Assembly (NCBI GenBank): GCA_947561715.1
Contig: OX387201.1
Coordinates: 22,148,001 to 22,212,000 of the forward strand
DNA length: 64,000 nucleotides
Source of the DNA: Ascidia mentula
Lineage: Eukaryota > Chordata > Ascidiacea > Phlebobranchia > Ascidiidae
Reading direction: 5' to 3'
Part shown: positions 1 through 64,000 of the stretch, piece after piece
Numbering within the stretch: the stretch's first letter is position 1
Layout: each line of letters opens with the position of its first letter
Translations under genes and position numbers: made by a program
Notes under the pieces: model-generated
What the model was told of the DNA's origin: nothing
What the model saw: only the letters and a program-made list of their open reading frames with translations
Database searches by the model: none

Positions 1-3000
1 CGGAACCTTTCAGTGGATCATCTTTCGCAACCACAGCTGACTCGAGCACACACTCATGCTGGTTGATCACCTGCCATTAAAACACAACCTTCACCAACAA
101 ACACAGCCAGACCAACCAATATCACAACACCATCACAAGCTAAATTCTGCAAACAAACTCTTACACTCTCCCAGGAATAAATTGTAATTTCCCCAATATT
201 AATAAAAACATAATTTTAAAAATTATTTCCTGGAAAAGTTGAGAAAAACACGAAAATAACACGAGTTGAGAATAGAGAATTTGAATATTGAGAGGGAATC
301 CGACACTCAATATGATTAACTCATTTTTAAACATTGGTTCTAGGAATCAACATTGTCAATTGGATTTGTGCACAAAAATGGGATTGTATAAAAAAACAGA
401 GTAAGTTTAATGTACGGTGGAAGATACGAGAGCATGGCGAAGATAAATGACATCACTGAATATTTAGAGTCAGTTGAACCTGAATCTTTCCAGCATTGAC
501 AGCTGTATAACGTAGATTGAAACTTACCTCCTCAATATGACCACATGACAAGCGATGACCTGCTACATTGATGACATCATCAGTACGTGACATCACAGAC
601 ACATATCCCTCCTCATCCATGACCCCCGCATCCATGGTGTCATAGAAACCCTGCAGAGAGTTAATATTAACCCTCTCACACAAACAAAAGTAACAAATCA
701 CAACTGGATATTTGTTCCCAAATTTTAATCCCAGGATGTTACCCCACAAATAAGCACACCCTCACATAATCACAGTGCATAGTTTCACCCTTAAAATGTA
801 CTTATTAAATGGTGAAACTACACACACAACTGACTGCTTTATGCCCTGGAAACATTTTGTATAGGAATAGGCAGCTATTCCAGCTAGAGAAACACAAATA
901 TGCGACCTCAACATAAACCAACCTTTTGTCAAGTTATTTACAGATCAAATAAAACATTTCACACCGATTCAGACGACATATTTGTAGTTTTCGAGCATAG
1001 AAATCAAAGTGTGCACCTTGTATTTGACGAAGTAAGTATTTTTAAAACGTTGTTCGTTGTTCCACAAAGTTTGAAAAGCTCCGGGTGGAAGGGGAAGTTT
1101 TGCAACGAGATTTCCAAGTTTTCCTCGAGGGAGTTCATTGCCATCGTCATCCACAACTCGCACTAAAAACATAAAAAAACATCGACTTATTCACTGAGTT
1201 TGCCATAAAGATTAAAAGCACACAATAAAATATTACTTGGAAATACTTTTAATATTATTTTTTCATGAGTACAAGTTTATAATATAAGTATATTTTTTAA
1301 TTTCTTAAATCATAAAAATGTTGAAACTCACAATCCCAGCCTGGAACAGGAAGCCCTGAGCTGCCCTCTGGTGGATTATCCCTGTTTCCGAGACCGATAC
1401 ATGAGCAAGTAATTGGACTTCCAGTTTCAGACTGCCACCAGTGGTCAAACACGGGGACACCGAATGCATCCTTGCACCAATCATATGTCGCGCTGTCGCA
1501 ATGCTCTCCAGCGATAAACAAGTTTTTTAAACTGCAACAAAATATTTTTACTTTACACAAAATTTTTTTTATTTAGTTTTAAAGGAAAGTGCACAAATAA
1601 ATCTGCAAGCAGCAGTTTGACACAAAACTGGTCATAAATCTTTGGTTTCACACTGGTCTTGTGTGAAAACAAATTAAAAAAAAGCAAACAAAAAAACAAT
1701 GATTTGTTGGAAATTCAACTGATATTTGTGTGTTGTACCTCGATAAATCGTATTTTTTGGCATGTTCTGCATTAGAGTCTTCACGCTTGATCGATCGCAT
1801 GGCAGTAGGAGCGACGAACAGACAAGATACTTTGTGGTCGTTGACGACTCTGAAGAATGAAGATGGGTCTGGAGTTCCAACTGGTTTCCCCTGCAAACAA
1901 CTTTAGGTTTAACAACAAGGCGGAAATTTCTCATGTGAAAAATGGTCAAAATTGTGGCAGGATTTTTAAAATACATTGAATGTGGCCGATGGAATACAAC
2001 AAAAACTTTAGCTAAACACAAAATTACTATATTTATGTAGCAACTTGGTGTTCATTCTAACTGTTTGGAGAATAATCGTAACTTTTCAATCAAAAATATT
2101 TGTTTCTGATGAAGAAACTCTGTGTTACACCAGAAATATTTGGTGATTTGGTCTTTGAATCATAATTTTGTGCATGTTGTTGTTACAATTCGGTAAAAAC
2201 CAGAAAACAAATTTACTTGAAACACTTTTTATGCAATAAATCTTGCCAGAGGGCAGCAAAGAGTCATACCTCATAAACCACAGTGGTTGTCCCATAGAGC
2301 AGAGGGGCATGCGCTCCGTACGAATGTCCGACAGCCCAGCCCAAATCTGCAGCTGCCCAATATACCTTTGAAATATCAAATATTAGATAGTTTCCATGCC
2401 AACAGCTTCGTTTTAAGATCACATTTCAAAAAACACCAGTTTGAGTAAAGAATGTTTCCTCGTGTCACGAATTAAACTCACAGATACAATATTTACTGGA
2501 TTGTAAGCCGCATGTAAATGTTAAAGGCAAACTTTGGTGCCCTACAATAATTGTTAACAAATCTGTCGTTTAAACTTGTCACGTACACTAAAAACTGTGT
2601 TTGATAAAACACATCAAGATTTTTTCATCAAGTATCAAGATTACCTCCCCAGGGTCAACGTCATATATCGCCTTCATGCTCCAGTGCAGGCGGACAGCGT
2701 GGCCGCCAGTTGGACGAACGACTGCTTTCGGAATGCCAGTGGTGCCAGATGTGTATAACAGATACAAGGGATGGTTGGATTCGACCGGGACGCAATCGTG
2801 TCGTCTCTCCCTCGACATCACTTCCTCCCAATTCAAGTCAGTACCCGTGTTCAGATTTGCCGCTTCCTGTAAATATTTCTTGGTGGTAAATTACTAAGGT
2901 CTGGTCAATGTAAACAATCTGTTGGTAACATATGCAAATTCCCTTACAAAACTAAACATTTATTGAAAATGATATAAACATAACAGGAATCACTCTGTTC

Positions 3001-14384: not shown

Positions 14385-14830
14385 CACCCAGCCAACAGGG
14401 GTTGTAACCAAAAAGTGGCTCGGGCCACGTGGCACCAACATGGCACGCATTTCACCAAATTTGGGCCACGTGACCCCAACATGGCACGCATGTCACCAGC
14501 ATGGCACCAACATGGCACCAGCATGGCACCTGGGTGTGTTTTCTGTTTATACTACTTAATGAATCCACTGTATGCTAAATCAGTAATATAGTCTGCAGTT
14601 ATCATTTGCACTAAACGTTAGGCATTTCATCAGTGTGGAAAACTTTGTTTCAACAAAAACAAGATGTAACAATAACTTTAAACTGCTAGGTGCGTTTGTC
14701 AATAGTTTCAAAATTGAGCCGAAAAGTCGAAATGGGTTTAAATATGGTTATCAATGAAACGTTGTATTTTGTTGCATGCCCACTTGTGCACACTGATTTG
14801 TACTATGATTTCTATAGTGACATGTTACGA

Positions 14831-15310
14831 TCCCAGCGGACCCAGCGGACCCAGCGGACCCAGCGGACCCAGCGGACCCAGCGGACCCAGCGGACCCAGC
14901 GGACCCAGCGGACCCAGCGGACCCAGCGGACCCAGCGGACCCAGCGGACCCAGCGGACCCAGCGGACCCAGCGGACCCAGCGGACCCAGCGGACCCAGCG
15001 GACCCAGCGGACCCAGCGGACCCAGCGGACCCAGCGGACCCAGCGGACCCAGCGGACCCAGCGGACCCAGCGGACCCAGCGGACCCAGCGGACCCAGCGG
15101 ACCCAGCGGACCCAGCGGACCCAGCGGACCCAGCGGACCCAGCGGACCCAGCGGACCCAGCGGACCCAGCGGACCCAGCGGACCCAGCGGACCCAGCGGA
15201 CCCAGCGGACCCAGCGGACCCAGCGGACCCAGCGGACCCAGCGGACCCAGCGGACCCAGCGGACCCAGCGGACCCAGCGGACCCAGCGGACCCAGCGGAC
15301 CCAGCGGACC
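14831..15310. repeat. 9-bp minisatellite, unit GGACCCAGC
   Basis: About 53 head-to-tail copies over 480 bp; I saw no variant unit. Because 9 is a multiple of 3, one plus-strand frame is open and reads a Cys-rich hydrophobic leader followed by Pro-Ser-Gly triplets, and another reads Thr-Gln-Arg triplets. I treat these as by-products of the repeat. Confidence 0.95.
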
Positions 15311-15468
15311 TGTAGTATTAGGTCAAATATAGCGCACCTGCAGTATTAGAAGGTACCTAGCGGACCTGTAGTATTAGGTCAAATATAGCGCACCTGCAGT
15401 ATTAGAAGGTACCTAGCGGACCTGTAGTATTGGAAGGTACCTAGCGTACCTGTATTATTAGAAGGTAC
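15311..15468. repeat. Spacer of about 65-bp repeats between the two minisatellites
   Basis: Two full copies and shorter partial copies of a unit containing GGACCTGTAGTATTAGGTC and GCACCTGCAGTATTAGAAG. The unit contains the GGACCT motif of the following array and may have seeded it. Confidence 0.8.
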
Positions 15469-15947
15469 CTAGCGGACCTAGCGGACCTAGCGGACCTAGC
15501 GGACCTAGCGGACCTAGCGGACCTAGCGGACCTAGCGGACCTAGCGGACCTAGCGGACCTAGCGGACCTAGCGGACCTAGCGGACCTAGCGGACCTAGCG
15601 GACCTAGCGGACCTAGCGGACCTAGCGGACCTAGCGGACCTAGCGGACCTAGCGGACCTAGCGGACCTAGCGGACCTAGCGGACCTAGCGGACCTAGCGG
15701 ACCTAGCGGACCTAGCGGACCTAGCGGACCTAGCGGACCTAGCGGACCTAGCGGACCTAGCGGACCTAGCGGACCTAGCGGACCTAGCGGACCTAGCGGA
15801 CCTAGCGGACCTAGCGGACCTAGCGGACCTAGCGGACCTAGCGGACCTAGCGGACCTAGCGGACCTAGCGGACCTAGCGGACCTAGCGGACCTAGCGCAC
15901 CTAGCGGACCTAGCGGACCTAGCGCACCTAGCGGACCTAGCGCACCT
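15469..15947. repeat. 9-bp minisatellite, unit GGACCTAGC
   Basis: About 53 copies over 479 bp, perfectly regular except for a few GCACCTAGC variants at the right edge. The unit differs from the first array by one C-to-T change. The minus strand is open as Gly-Pro-Leu triplets. Confidence 0.95.
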
Positions 15948-16219
15948 GTAAGTTTGCCTGTTACGATTGCTTTCACTTTCAGCTTCAGGCTTTCAAACAA
16001 ACATTTCTAATCACATTTTTAACATATTTGCTAAACACATCTTTTATCTTTGTATACTTATGTTTGGTGCTGCATAACTACGCTATTTTTACATAACAGT
16101 TGAGCGAAATGCGGTGCCATGCTATTGATTCTTTTCAGGTATTGCAGATGCTTCTTGTCACAGTTGCAAGTGTATTAATCATTAAATGCATAACTTAATA
16201 CTGCATCTATTTGTGTAAA

Positions 16220-16268
16220 CTGCAGACAGATGGCCACTGTTTCGACCTAAAAGGTCTCATCAGTGCAG
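16220..16268 (-). ncRNA. Hammerhead ribozyme motif 1
   Basis: Minus strand reads, in order: stem I CTGCA, core CTGATGA, stem II hairpin GACCTTTTAGGTC, core GAA, stem III ACAG/CTGT closed by TGGCCAT, cleavage C after GT, and stem I partner TGCAG. All invariant core bases of a type I hammerhead (open stem I) are present. Stem I has 5 Watson-Crick pairs, extendable by a G-U and an A-U pair. Confidence 0.85.
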
Positions 16269-16496
16269 CTGGTTTGACTTTCAGACGACTTTGCTGACCA
16301 AACGACCAAGCAAAGACTTCCACTTTGTGGTGACTATACAATCACCGTCATCCGTTGGGCACCAAACTAGGTGCAACCTTACGGTGGAAACACTACGGCC
16401 AAGCAAAGCTCAACCAATAGTGCCGTCAGGCCCCGTGTCACAATAATCATATGATAAGCAATGTGGAGCCAATAATATGAATTGTGTAAGCTGCAG
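16226..16496 (-). mobile_element. Retrozyme-like 271-nt unit bounded by hammerheads
   Basis: The sequence between the two predicted cleavage sites is one monomer, non-coding and with internal stems. Part of it (TTGGTTGAGCTTTGC... through GGTGCCCAACGGATGACGG to the hammerhead) recurs in inverted orientation at about 16558-16747. Non-coding units of a few hundred nt joined by hammerheads are the defining feature of retrozymes; assignment to that class is inference. Confidence 0.55.
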
Positions 16497-16541
16497 ACAG
16501 ATGGCCACTGTTTCGACCTAAAAGGTCTCATCAGTGCAGCT
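16489..16541 (-). ncRNA. Hammerhead ribozyme motif 2
   Basis: Same layout as motif 1, with a perfect 7-bp stem I: AGCTGCA, CTGATGA, GACCTTTTAGGTC, GAA, ACAG-TGGCCAT-CTGT, C, TGCAGCT. The predicted cleavage site follows the base opposite 16496. Its distance to the equivalent base in motif 1 (16225) is 271 bp, giving a unit of 271 nt bounded by self-cleaving sites. Confidence 0.88.
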
Positions 16542-16557
16542 GGTGTGACTATAAGAT

Positions 16558-16790
16558 ATTGGTTGAGCTTTGCATAGTGTTTCCACCTTGTTTTCTCCGT
16601 TTTGGTTGCACCTAGGTTGGTGCCCAACGGATGACGGTGACTGTATAGTCACCACAAAGTGGAAGTCTTTGCTTGGCCGTTTGGTCAGCAAAGTCGTCTG
16701 TAAGTCACACCAGCTGCACTGATGAGACCTTTTAGGTCGTCTGCAGGTTATACACAATTCACATTTTTGGCTCCCCATTGCTGCATATAT
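16558..16790 (+). repeat. Inverted, partial copy of the hammerhead unit
   Basis: Plus-strand copy of the same unit. It ends in CAGCTGCA-CTGATGA-GACCTTTTAGGTC followed directly by GTC-TGCAGG (16711-16747); the GAA and whole stem III hairpin (GAAACAGTGGCCATCT in the other copies) are absent, so this hammerhead should be inactive. The post-hammerhead sequence (ACACAATTCA, TTGGCTCC, CATTGCT) matches that following motif 2, showing the unit repeats tail to head. Confidence 0.8.
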
Positions 16791-17125
16791 CTGCTTAGTG
16801 CTGCATAACTGCTCTTTTCTGACACTAAACTTTGGCAAATAACAACTGCATTATTAACGTTATCCACAAATACGGTGTCACATTGGTCCCATGCTGTGGC
16901 CATGTTGGTGACATGCAGGTGCCATGTTGGTGACATGCGTGCCATGTTGGTGCCACGTGAGCCATATTGGTGCCATGTGGCCCAAAAATCAGTTCCATGC
17001 GTGCCATGTTGGTGCCACGTGAGCCATATTGGTGCCATGTGGCCCAAAAATCAGTTCCATGCGTGCCATGTTGGTGCCACGTGTTCCGTGCCACTTTTTG
17101 GTTACGAACCCGCCTTCACCCAGCC

Positions 17126-43997: not shown

Positions 43998-44319
43998 AGG
44001 TTCACAGGCTTCGCAGCCAAGGCATTGCAGCCAAGCTGGATCAGCCACTTTTCCCGACAAGTCGGAGCGAAATCTGCAAAATCAAGCTCCCGGTGAGGTT
44101 TGAACTCACGACCCTGGACTAACTAGGCTCAACGCTCTACCAACTGAGCTACAGGAGCTCAGTGGTTTCACAGGGTATATTGTGGCCAAGGTACACTGGT
44201 GCGCAAGTGCACAACTTGTCAGGCGACCTTCACATGCGTAGAGGATCTTCACCACCGTAATCAGACAACGCAGAAGTAATGCCCTGCTTTCGCATAGCAA
44301 GGCAGGATCTCCCACTGCG
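43998..44319 (-). repeat. tRNA-type SINE copy C with intact target duplication
   Basis: 322 bp flanked by a perfect 14-bp duplication CATTGCCTAAAATA (43984-43997 and 44320-44333), as expected from LINE-driven retroposition. On the minus strand there is a head of about 160 nt, then a tRNA-like domain at 44158-44086, then an 85-nt tail ending in GCCTGTGAACCT. There is no poly(A) tail. Confidence 0.88.
44086..44158 (-). tRNA. tRNA-like domain of SINE copy C (not a functional tRNA)
   Basis: 73 nt. The acceptor pairs GCTCCTG with CGGGAGC, D arm/A box TAGCTCAGTTGGTAGAG, and T arm GTGAG-TTCAAAC-CTCAC are all good. The anticodon arm does not pair, so no anticodon can be assigned. It serves as an internal Pol III promoter rather than a tRNA gene. 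Confidence 0.6.
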
Positions 44320-62443: not shown

Positions 62444-64000
62444 TATGTTTGATCAATGTTTTAAGTTAAAAATCATCTTCAAACACAAAGTTAACAAGTA
62501 ATAAAGAGTCAGAATCAATGGGAATTGCATTTTGATTGGCCCCTTGGCAATCGTTTGTTGTTAATTTCTATAACTATACATAAGTACTGGTTTCATCTTG
62601 TTGTCAAACAATGGGTTTGAGTCCCGCTGAAAATGCATTTTAGTTATGATTAAAGTTCTTCAATAAAACGCTGCATACTGTTGTCGTCAAAGTACCAAAA
62701 AGAAAAAAACGCGTCCGACTTTGGAACTAGCGCGTCCGATAACTACTTAACATCGTTTTGCTCTTTGATTTAACGTTGCGCTCCACGCGATTTATTCAAA
62801 AAATTCTATCTTAAACCAATGCATTTTTAGCCAATCTTTACCTGTAGCGTAAACGTCAGACCCATTGTGACGTTAGAACCATTGTTCATGCAAAGTATGA
62901 CGTTTCAGAAGCGGGGTACCACAAAGTGGAAATCTGTGTGCCTGCTAGTCTACCAGCTAGCATGTGCCACGGTCACCAGCTGCACTGACAAGACCTTACA
63001 GGTCGAAACAGATCTGTACACCTGCTTTGCAGCTCTCATTAATTATCATGGCTCTTTTGCGCATGTAATATTTCTTGATTGATTCACACAAAAGTTAGTC
63101 AGCATAAATCCAAGGCTTATCATCGAAGACTGCAAGGGTGGTTACGTCACTTTGACAGATATGTAGATTTCAGGAAAAATTCTGAGGGAGGATGCATGAC
63201 GTATACACATAATTTTTGAGCAAATGAATACCTGCCGCGACTGTAGTGAAAATTGCCATGAAACAGTTGCTATTCGTGGATATAAAAGTTGCATAATCTA
63301 ACGACCACAAGACTGCAGTAGCTACACAATTTAGGGGATACAAATGAATCTGCATTGTGTTCCCGTGTTATAGACAATACAACCGCATCAACAGGAATCC
63401 ATAAACAAGGAACCATTTTGGCGAAGCGGTAAATTGGTCGTGAAAAATTATTGCATAAATTTTTTACCTGCGTCTACTATGTAGAAGCGAAACGTCATAA
63501 ATAAAAACAATTCCGAACAGTTATGTGAGCATCAACATTTCGATTTTGTTTCACCGAAAGAACAAATAATTGATCCGTAATTTAACATATTATCACAAGT
63601 TCAGTTAACGCAACAAACTTGTTTGTTTTCCGGTTTGTGGAAGAGCCTGAACTTGTGAGGTAGGTAAAACCTTACAAACTCGTTAACCCAAGCTATAACC
63701 CGTTTATGTGGGATCCACCTCGTACAACGTCTGTGTCGAGATCAGCCTAAAGTTTACAAGCATTTAAACAAGATTTATAAATCTAACATAAAACAACGTA
63801 CCAAAAAAACGTAACAATCTTAATGCAAAACAATAAGGTTTGACCATTTATGCCTTGACTCTAACAGAATTGCGTTGGCGTGGGATACTGTTGATGCAAC
63901 CTCGAATTTGTTTTATTGAAAAAAAAGGACGCTAAAGGCGTACAACTGAAGAAAGGGCAAAGCAAGAAGACAAACAACAATGGTTAAACATAATGGCGAG
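62444..64000. other. Upstream region of the CARF-like gene; no other gene seen
   Basis: Contains repeated GCGTCCGA motifs near 62715-62740, in the probable promoter of the minus-strand gene, and the decayed hammerhead relative at 62977-63034. The remainder to the window end is AT-rich with no supported ORF. Confidence 0.4.
62977..63034 (+). ncRNA. Decayed hammerhead relative
   Basis: Plus strand: AGCTGCA, CTGACAA, stem II GACCTTACAGGTC, GAA, ACAG-AT-CTGT, A, then TGCAGCT after a short insertion. Stem I, II and III pairings are kept but the core G of CTGANGA is A, so cleavage is not expected. Upstream TACCACAAAGTGGAAATCTG matches part of the unit at 16.3-16.7 kb, so it is the same family. Confidence 0.6.

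What the first reader, a model, noticed from the sequence alone, without database searches (positions are those of the whole stretch)
16220..16541. Two hammerhead ribozymes with complete cores, 271 bp apart, defining a retrozyme-like unit
Seen directly: the minus strand carries two copies of stem I / CTGATGA / GACCTTTTAGGTC / GAA / ACAG...CTGT / C / stem I. All invariant hammerhead bases are present, three stems pair, and one copy has a 7-bp stem I. Both point the same way, so a transcript through both would release a 271-nt RNA with 5'-OH and 2',3'-cyclic phosphate ends suited to circularisation. Known family: type I hammerheads bound retrozyme monomers in plants and animals. Inference: this is a tunicate retrozyme lineage.
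Basis: partly seen in the sequence, partly recalled or inferred. Interest (0 to 1): 0.9.

Follow-up and report, generated by a model that had tools for sequence, protein, structure and literature searches.

The report
Ribozyme retrozyme inserted by Penelope machinery
A small self-cutting RNA element has copied itself around this animal genome, and the scars at its insertion sites resemble those of Penelope retrotransposons, which points to the kind of enzyme that moves it.

Summary
The two hammerhead ribozymes are real: minus strand, complete cores, 271 bp apart. They are not the whole unit. They form one arm of a 568-bp insertion (16213-16780). The other arm points the opposite way and carries a third ribozyme that has lost stem III. 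The insertion sits in an older repeat between imperfect 12-bp target duplications; two paralogous repeats lack it.

The family's unit is 283-285 bp, with 1379 ribozyme matches. Of 40 loci read, 32 are divergent inverted arrays, 1 is rearranged and 7 have one arm. 33 have exact target duplications of 12-16 bp, against 4 of 1560 mispaired controls. In 28 of those 33, one end lies at unit 13-19 and the other at 40-49. Copies within an insertion share one template.

The 8 Penelope-like insertions that I resolved in this genome have 12-13-bp duplications and a 27-44-nt tail at one end, in line with published Penelope biochemistry (PMC11167929).

New here is footprint evidence that Penelope machinery moves it by priming on both cut strands of one circular (or multimeric) RNA. 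Transcription, cleavage and circles are untested.

The parts
16213..16780 (.). Retrozyme insertion: two divergent arms joined head to head
   Evidence: Imperfect 12-bp target duplication on both sides; two paralogs of the host repeat lack the insert
16201..16212 (.). Left target site duplication CTGCATCTATTT
   Evidence: Matches the right copy at 10 of 12; one such site in host paralogs L072 and L073
16781..16792 (.). Right target site duplication CTGCATATATCT
   Evidence: As above
16213..16556 (-). Left arm, a little over one unit, sense reads leftwards; outer end near unit position 14 (reverse-transcription start 1)
   Evidence: Alignment to the 285-bp unit
16557..16780 (+). Right arm, partial unit, sense reads rightwards; outer end near unit position 40 (reverse-transcription start 2)
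   Evidence: Alignment to the unit
16218..16270 (-). Hammerhead ribozyme A, type I, complete core, cleavage between 16225 and 16224
16489..16541 (-). Hammerhead ribozyme B, type I, complete core, cleavage between 16496 and 16495
16712..16746 (+). Third ribozyme copy, broken: GAA and stem III missing
14394..17116 (.). Host repeat into which the retrozyme inserted (imperfect terminal inverted repeats, 9-bp minisatellite inside); flanked by CACCCAGCC at 14385-14393 and 17117-17125
   Evidence: 10 further places match part of it

Best explanation
It is a non-autonomous, non-coding retroelement (a metazoan-type retrozyme) that is inserted by the protein of a Penelope-like element (PLE).

Proposed cycle: (1) a transcript of the repeat is cut by the hammerheads into 283-285-nt monomers, which are ligated into circles [inferred]. 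(2) A PLE protein makes two nicks 12 nt apart, each just before a GTT-like motif, leaving 12-nt 3' overhangs [inferred from 12-bp duplications and the AAC-N12-GTT target]. (3) Both 3' ends prime cDNA on the RNA, one at unit position about 16 and the other at about 43 [inferred from the ends]. (4) Each cDNA runs 5'-ward, first through the ribozyme and then round the unit, for less than one to almost six units. (5) The two cDNAs are joined in the middle with short microhomology, giving a divergent inverted array. The footprints behind steps 2-5 are shown in sequence; the enzyme's identity and the circular form are inferred.
For: Architecture: of 40 loci, 32 have two divergent arms (one of them, L023, with a second arm of only 27 bp), L042 is rearranged, 7 have one arm. 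In the first 100 listed ribozyme hits, neighbours within 1.5 kb are -+ 10, ++ 9, -- 3, +- 0; 4 of the 10 lie in my 40 loci. Target duplications: exact 12-16 bp at 33 of 40; 4 of 1560 mispaired controls reach 12. Target: AAC before or GTT after the duplication in 16 of 21 exact-12-bp loci, each about 2% in background. Ends: 28 of 33 loci have one end at unit 13-19 and one at 40-49; none of the 33 has two genuine ends of one kind. One template: opposite arms of a locus differ by 0.75% against 2.4% when re-paired, 0 of 1000 permutations, L010 left out; 402 of 407 locus-columns uniform over 17 varying columns. Junction microhomology averages 2.0 bp in the 15 of 32 junctions that fit cleanly, chance 0.68. 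Copy number falls 5'-ward: ribozyme 1379, then 788, 546, 312, 128. Empty sites at 2 of 2 host paralogs read.

PLE link: 8 of 8 resolved PLE insertions have 12-13-bp duplications and a 27-44-nt tail at one end only; the retrozyme's two start sites lie 24-33 nt apart. GIY-YIG neighbours within 8 kb are -+ 17, ++ 6, -- 1, +- 0. One PLE open frame has RVT_1 and GIY-YIG. A purified PLE protein extends both target strands and starts at two adjacent RNA sites that bound the tail (PMC11167929). Endonuclease matches of one PLE array repeat at exactly 2870 bp in both arms.
Against: No retrozyme-PLE sequence similarity at the start sites was found; the only match (L050/L057) looks like an old short retrozyme copy. 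The target motif is alike, not identical: C-N12/13-GT in 6 of 8 PLEs. 6 of the 8 PLE insertions were picked as back-to-back pairs, so their divergence is no independent evidence; L051 could not be resolved. In vitro the Anolis protein showed no difference in start site between top and bottom strand, its ribozyme was not needed, and Anolis RNA-seq had no reads ending at the cleavage site. Circles are not shown: an uncleaved multimer would serve as template. The copy-number fall is not strict: unit 29-70 has 197, more than 56-97. The opposite-arm copy is at least as near as any other locus for only 60 of 89 copies. 7 of 40 loci have one arm, 7 lack a clear duplication of 12 bp, and L022 has one end at unit 267. 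The 40 loci are the best-scoring of 2473 candidates, so they over-represent long young copies. Ribozyme conservation is suggestive only: 1 against 67 inherited locus-columns (p 0.0003), but 1 of 53 against 19 of 232 distinct columns (p 0.14). The predicted MFE is not the hammerhead fold.
Confidence: 0.82

Rival explanations
1. A foldback-type DNA transposon whose inverted arms happen to contain hammerhead repeats, moved by a transposase.
For: Inverted arms, target duplications of near-constant length, many copies.
Against: The two ends are different unit positions, 24-33 nt apart, not matching terminal inverted repeats. Arm lengths range from 30 to 1678 bp and the middle junction falls at many places in the unit. 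Single-armed inserts exist with one normal end and one arbitrary end (L017, L039, L040, L046). Copy number decays away from the ends.
Confidence: 0.04
2. Same double-ended reverse transcription, but on uncleaved linear multimeric transcripts; the ribozyme is not needed for insertion.
For: PLE hammerhead mutants still insert in vitro and unprocessed RNA is used (PMC11167929). Arms run through the cleavage site, which an uncleaved multimer also allows.
Against: The fall in copy number implies that most copies are shorter than one unit, so multi-unit transcripts can come only from few loci. Copies within a locus are uniform across both arms, although an array that started uniform would look the same. 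Metazoan retrozyme RNA is known to be largely circular in several animals (PMC7229834).
Confidence: 0.25
3. Mobilisation by a LINE rather than a PLE, with unusually frequent twin priming.
For: Target-primed insertion with inversion is known for LINEs (recalled). LINEs of this genome were not examined.
Against: By eye no poly(A) or microsatellite tail at the ends, two set internal start sites, a tight 12-bp duplication and a one-ended tail, as in the PLEs of the same genome.
Confidence: 0.08
4. Head-to-head structure by self-priming on an antisense template, as proposed for rotifer Penelope copies (PMC3846280).
For: That paper describes head-to-head inverted copies with a 31-bp tail at one end and explains them so (passages).
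Against: Self-priming would make the second arm a copy of the first, with the same outer end; here the outer ends are two different sites in 28 of 33 loci, and clean junctions are short microhomologies spread over the unit.
Confidence: 0.07
5. Assembly artefact producing palindromes.
For: Palindromes are a known long-read failure (recalled).
Against: Target duplications outside the unequal arms at 33 of 40 loci, empty sites at two host paralogs, and different junctions at different loci.
Confidence: 0.01

Closest known systems
Metazoan non-LTR retrozymes with type I hammerheads (Cervera and de la Pena 2020, PMC7229834)
   Same: Type I hammerhead, unit of about 300 bp in tandem, non-coding, target duplications longer than 4 bp
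   Different: Divergent inverted double arrays with two set start sites and a tight 12-bp duplication are not described in the parts read (abstract, sections 13, 14, 17 and passages); that paper names PLEs only as a strong candidate for mobilisation
Penelope-like elements, e.g. Poseidon of Anolis (PMC11167929) and Penelope of Adineta vaga (PMC3846280)
   Same: Divergent inverted copies, tail at one end, target duplication, hammerhead near the end, two adjacent start sites, both strands extended
   Different: The retrozyme has no open frame for an enzyme, a full stem III, a unit about ten times shorter, and no sequence found in common with the PLEs sampled here; rotifer duplications are 8-10 bp, not 12
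Hammerheads of the tunicate Didemnum vexillum (PMC8704543)
   Same: Type I hammerheads in a tunicate genome (9 loci reported; one passage seen)
   Different: No repeat structure or mobility described in the passage seen
Plant LTR retrozymes (PMC4918200, seen in listings only; features as told in PMC7229834)
   Same: Non-autonomous, ribozyme-made circular RNA
   Different: Type III hammerheads, LTRs and 4-bp duplications; none of these here

Membership tests
Metazoan non-LTR retrozyme | Type I hammerhead with complete core | tested here: met
Metazoan non-LTR retrozyme | Short (150-450 bp) tandem repeat, multiple copies | tested here: met
   283-285 bp unit; arms up to 1678 bp; 1379 ribozyme matches
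Metazoan non-LTR retrozyme | GC below 50% (below 45% in one figure legend) | tested here: inconclusive
   46.7%: under 50%, over 45%
Metazoan non-LTR retrozyme | Target duplication longer than 4 bp | tested here: met
   33 of 40 loci with 12-16 bp
Metazoan non-LTR retrozyme | Expressed as self-cleaved linear and circular RNA | not testable with these tools
   No RNA data held
Metazoan non-LTR retrozyme | Loop I - loop II tertiary contact | tested here: inconclusive
   By eye only: stem I is an unbroken 7 bp and loop II 3 nt, so the usual contact is not apparent; mussel retrozymes lack most of its conserved bases too (PMC7229834)
Penelope-like element | Open frame with reverse transcriptase and GIY-YIG endonuclease | tested here: not met
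   The unit is 283-285 bp, too short for such a frame; the PLE L061 in the same genome meets it. So it is not a PLE, only moved like one
Penelope-like element | Divergent inverted copies with tail at one end only | tested here: met
   32 of 40 loci divergent; 28 of 33 with one end of each kind
Penelope-like element | 12-bp target duplication as in this genome's PLEs | tested here: met
   Retrozyme; PLE 8 of 8 resolved with 12-13 bp
Penelope-like element | Minimal hammerhead without full stem III | tested here: not met
   Retrozyme has ACAG/CTGT stem III with a 7-nt loop; PLE copies have about 2 bp there
Foldback DNA transposon | Matching terminal inverted repeats at both ends | tested here: not met
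   Ends are unit positions 13-19 and 40-49
Plant LTR retrozyme | Type III hammerhead and LTRs | tested here: not met
   Stem I is the open stem (type I); termini are partial units

The most novel reading that the evidence does not exclude
Both the retrozyme and the Penelope elements of this genome insert by double-ended rolling reverse transcription of one ribozyme-made RNA circle: the two cut target strands prime at two set sites and run round the same circle until they are joined. That single mechanism would explain the tandem copies, the inverted copies and the optional tail that have made Penelope structure puzzling, and would give the hammerhead its purpose, making the circle.
Probability: 0.42. 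Interest if true: 0.88.

Novelty: new variant of a known kind. Interest (0 to 1): 0.74.

Why it matters
Which enzyme moves animal retrozymes has been an open question; PLEs were named a strong candidate on circumstantial grounds (PMC7229834). Here insertion scars can be read base by base (40 loci read, over a thousand ribozyme matches in the genome), and they carry a PLE-like signature, so the question becomes a bench test with one RNA and one protein. The insertion structure also offers a simple account of why Penelope elements come as direct and inverted copies with a tail at one end.

Tried and rejected
Host repeat as the carrier: at first the TIR and minisatellite repeat around the ribozymes looked like a DNA transposon carrying them; in the 19 other loci first read it is absent around the retrozyme (two stray short matches to pieces of the query, in L015 and L023, aside), and paralogs of it lack the insert, so it is only the site of insertion.

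Rfam as arbiter: no hammerhead at gathering for the window or for 9 further sources; not informative here.

Retrozyme descended from a sampled PLE: no significant similarity except a 64-75-bp stretch in L050/L057, which on reading is an old short retrozyme copy.

Solved structures for the PLE protein: by sequence only one weak match, FAM228B, E 0.003; no use.

Folding z-score of the ribozyme alone: -1.1 and -1.7, not decisive. The unit folded as a circle gives z -3.1.

Covariation inside the family: too young to vary; I compared families instead. Own stem I pairing was 4-7 bp in 10 of 12 entries; 124 swapped pairings averaged 1.5 bp, though 15 of them reached 4-6. The two failures are a junction-truncated copy picked by the script and L052, which looks decayed.

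Papers: PMC4209133 and PMC5785218 are not held. The inverted double-ended structure of retrozymes was not met in the searches (listings, and the papers opened from them), which cover open-licence papers only.

Full report
WHAT IS THERE. A third copy on the plus strand (16712-16746) has lost GAA and stem III. The window's own genome (G000, 195.8 Mb, 79 contigs) holds many relatives: 234 BLAST matches from the 40 scored of 2473 candidates, and 1379 matches to the 44-nt ribozyme with at most 3 mismatches, reversed control 0.

THE ELEMENT. I read 40 loci: the window copy (L009) and 39 others (L010-L048). The repeat unit is 283-285 bp; I number it from the base after the cleavage point. In 32 of 40 loci the repeats form two arms pointing away from each other (L023 among them has a second arm of only 27 bp); L042 is rearranged (+ - + +); 7 are single-armed: L017, L032, L039, L040, L043, L044, L046. 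Arms are 30-1678 bp long (L023's 27-bp arm was not measured there). Because these are the best-scoring loci they favour long, young copies. The first 100 listed of the 1379 ribozyme matches (all without mismatch, two contigs) have neighbours within 1.5 kb in the order -+ 10, ++ 9, -- 3, +- 0; 4 of the 10 are among my 40 loci, 6 are not.

INSERTION SCARS. Exact target duplications of 12-16 bp (12 bp in 21) flank 33 of 40 loci. The same search over 1560 mispaired flanks gives 12 or more in 4. The seven others: L032 9 bp, L044 8, the window copy 6 exact, and L037, L042, L043, L045 5, unresolved. The window copy is older; paralogs of its host repeat (two read, L072 and L073) have the single uninterrupted site, which shows a 12-bp duplication with 10 of 12 bases still alike, 16201-16212 and 16781-16792. 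So the insertion is 16213-16780. The target reads AAC-N12-GTT: of the 21 exact-12-bp loci, AAC precedes in 10, GTT follows in 10, both in 4, one or the other in 16; background 2.2% and 2.4%. A symmetric motif 12 bp apart suggests the same nick on both strands, leaving 3' overhangs.

TWO START SITES. For the 33 loci with clear duplications the outer ends fall at unit 13-19 or 40-49 with few exceptions. 28 have exactly one of each, 24-33 nt apart, split 14/14 for left and right; 4 single-armed loci have one such end and one arbitrary end; L022 has one end at unit 267 (the script scored L017's arbitrary end as a start site at unit 12, wrongly). If both ends chose freely, one of each in 28 of 28 would be about 4e-9. 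Copy number falls with distance 5'-ward of the start sites: ribozyme 1379, unit 172-213 788, 136-177 546, 96-137 312, 56-97 128; but 29-70, further still, has 197. Premature stopping of reverse transcription from these sites predicts the fall; differences in divergence between segments may contribute and may explain the exception.

ONE TEMPLATE PER INSERTION. Copies in opposite arms of one locus differ by 0.75% (76 pairs, L010 left out), against 2.4% on average when arms of different loci are paired, 0 of 1000 permutations as low. At 17 columns that vary between loci, 402 locus-columns are uniform and 5 mixed, most loci carrying the common base. The signal is not perfect: for 60 of 89 copies the opposite arm is at least as near as any other locus. 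The middle junctions show microhomology of 2.0 bp on average in the 15 of 32 that fit cleanly, chance 0.68, 2 of 5000 draws as high; the other 17 did not fit well enough to be scored.

THE PENELOPE LINK. The genome holds many GIY-YIG matches (121, lower bound). Neighbouring pairs within 8 kb are -+ 17, ++ 6, -- 1, +- 0, so Penelope copies too stand back to back. One element read whole (L061) has two inverted copies, each with an 801-aa open frame; the frame tested matches RVT_1 and GIY-YIG. The 8 insertions whose both ends I resolved are L054, L059/L060, L061 and five end pairs L062-L071. All 8 have 12-13-bp exact duplications and a tail of 27-44 nt at one end only. L061 and the five pairs were picked as back-to-back pairs, so only the duplication and the tail count as findings for them. 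L051 could not be resolved; the other GIY-YIG loci fetched (L049, L050, L052, L053, L055-L058) were not tested for both ends. Flanks read C-N12/13-GT in 6 of 8. Of 10 PLE hammerheads examined, 9 keep a stem I of 4-5 bp although its sequence differs between families. In one locus the endonuclease matches repeat at exactly 2870 bp in both arms. Published work on purified Anolis Poseidon protein reports that it cuts and extends both strands and starts at two adjacent internal RNA sites that bound the tail, without a difference between strands (PMC11167929, parts 1 and 2 of 4 read). Rotifer Penelope copies have head-to-head inverted repeats, a 31-bp tail at one end and 8-10-bp duplications (PMC3846280, passages). 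The retrozyme scars match this genome's Penelope scars in layout, duplication length and one-sided tail.

WHAT IS NOT SHOWN. I found no sequence shared by the retrozyme and the sampled Penelope ends, so the partner family is unknown. A circle is favoured but not proven: an uncleaved multimer would give the same arrays, the Anolis enzyme does not need its ribozyme in vitro, and Anolis RNA-seq showed no reads ending at the cleavage site. Selection on the ribozyme is suggestive: variants fixed within loci are 1 in the ribozyme against 67 elsewhere, while partial ones are 18 against 75 (p 0.0003); counted as distinct columns the difference is weak (1 of 53 against 19 of 232, p 0.14). Alone the ribozyme's MFE is a competing fold 1.4 kcal/mol better, and the usual loop contact is not apparent, so activity may be slow.

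VERDICT. A retrozyme, in what is probably a tunicate (GH6 matches). As an element it is a known kind. The insertion mechanism that its scars suggest, double-ended priming on one RNA with the Penelope signature, was met for retrozymes in none of my paper searches (open-licence papers only) and makes an open question testable.

Noticed in passing
window 62918-63034 (+): An older, diverged single copy of the same ribozyme stretch (69% over 120 bp; core reads CTGACAA, so G8 is changed).
   Followed up: partly
window 14394-17116: Repeat with imperfect terminal inverted repeats, a 9-bp AGCGGACCT minisatellite of about 1.1 kb inside and a possible 9-bp duplication CACCCAGCC; part of it matches 10 further places, six of them within 1.3 Mb on C52.
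   Followed up: partly
L054, L059, L061, L062-L071: In four Penelope families the first start site lies between short complementary strings (CCACCAG/CTGGTGG, TGCCAG/CTGGCA, TCAGTCT/AGACTGA, GTCTCT/AGAGAC): a stem kept in structure but not in sequence. Seen by eye, not tested.
   Followed up: no
G000 C67:6134028-6146916: Five Penelope endonuclease matches in the order - - + + + with a period of exactly 2870 bp within each arm; tandem Penelope copies that look like rolling reverse transcription.
   Followed up: no
L050 and L057, about 933-1005 (-): Old short retrozyme copy near a Penelope element; the two loci are near-identical duplicates about 20 kb apart.
   Followed up: partly
ribozyme stem III loop (TGGCCAT), e.g. 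window 16489-16541 (-): The 7-nt loop contains the palindrome TGGCCA, which could let two ribozymes kiss; not tested.
   Followed up: no
window 44085-44158 (-): A tRNA gene, the only Rfam match at gathering score in the window.
   Followed up: no
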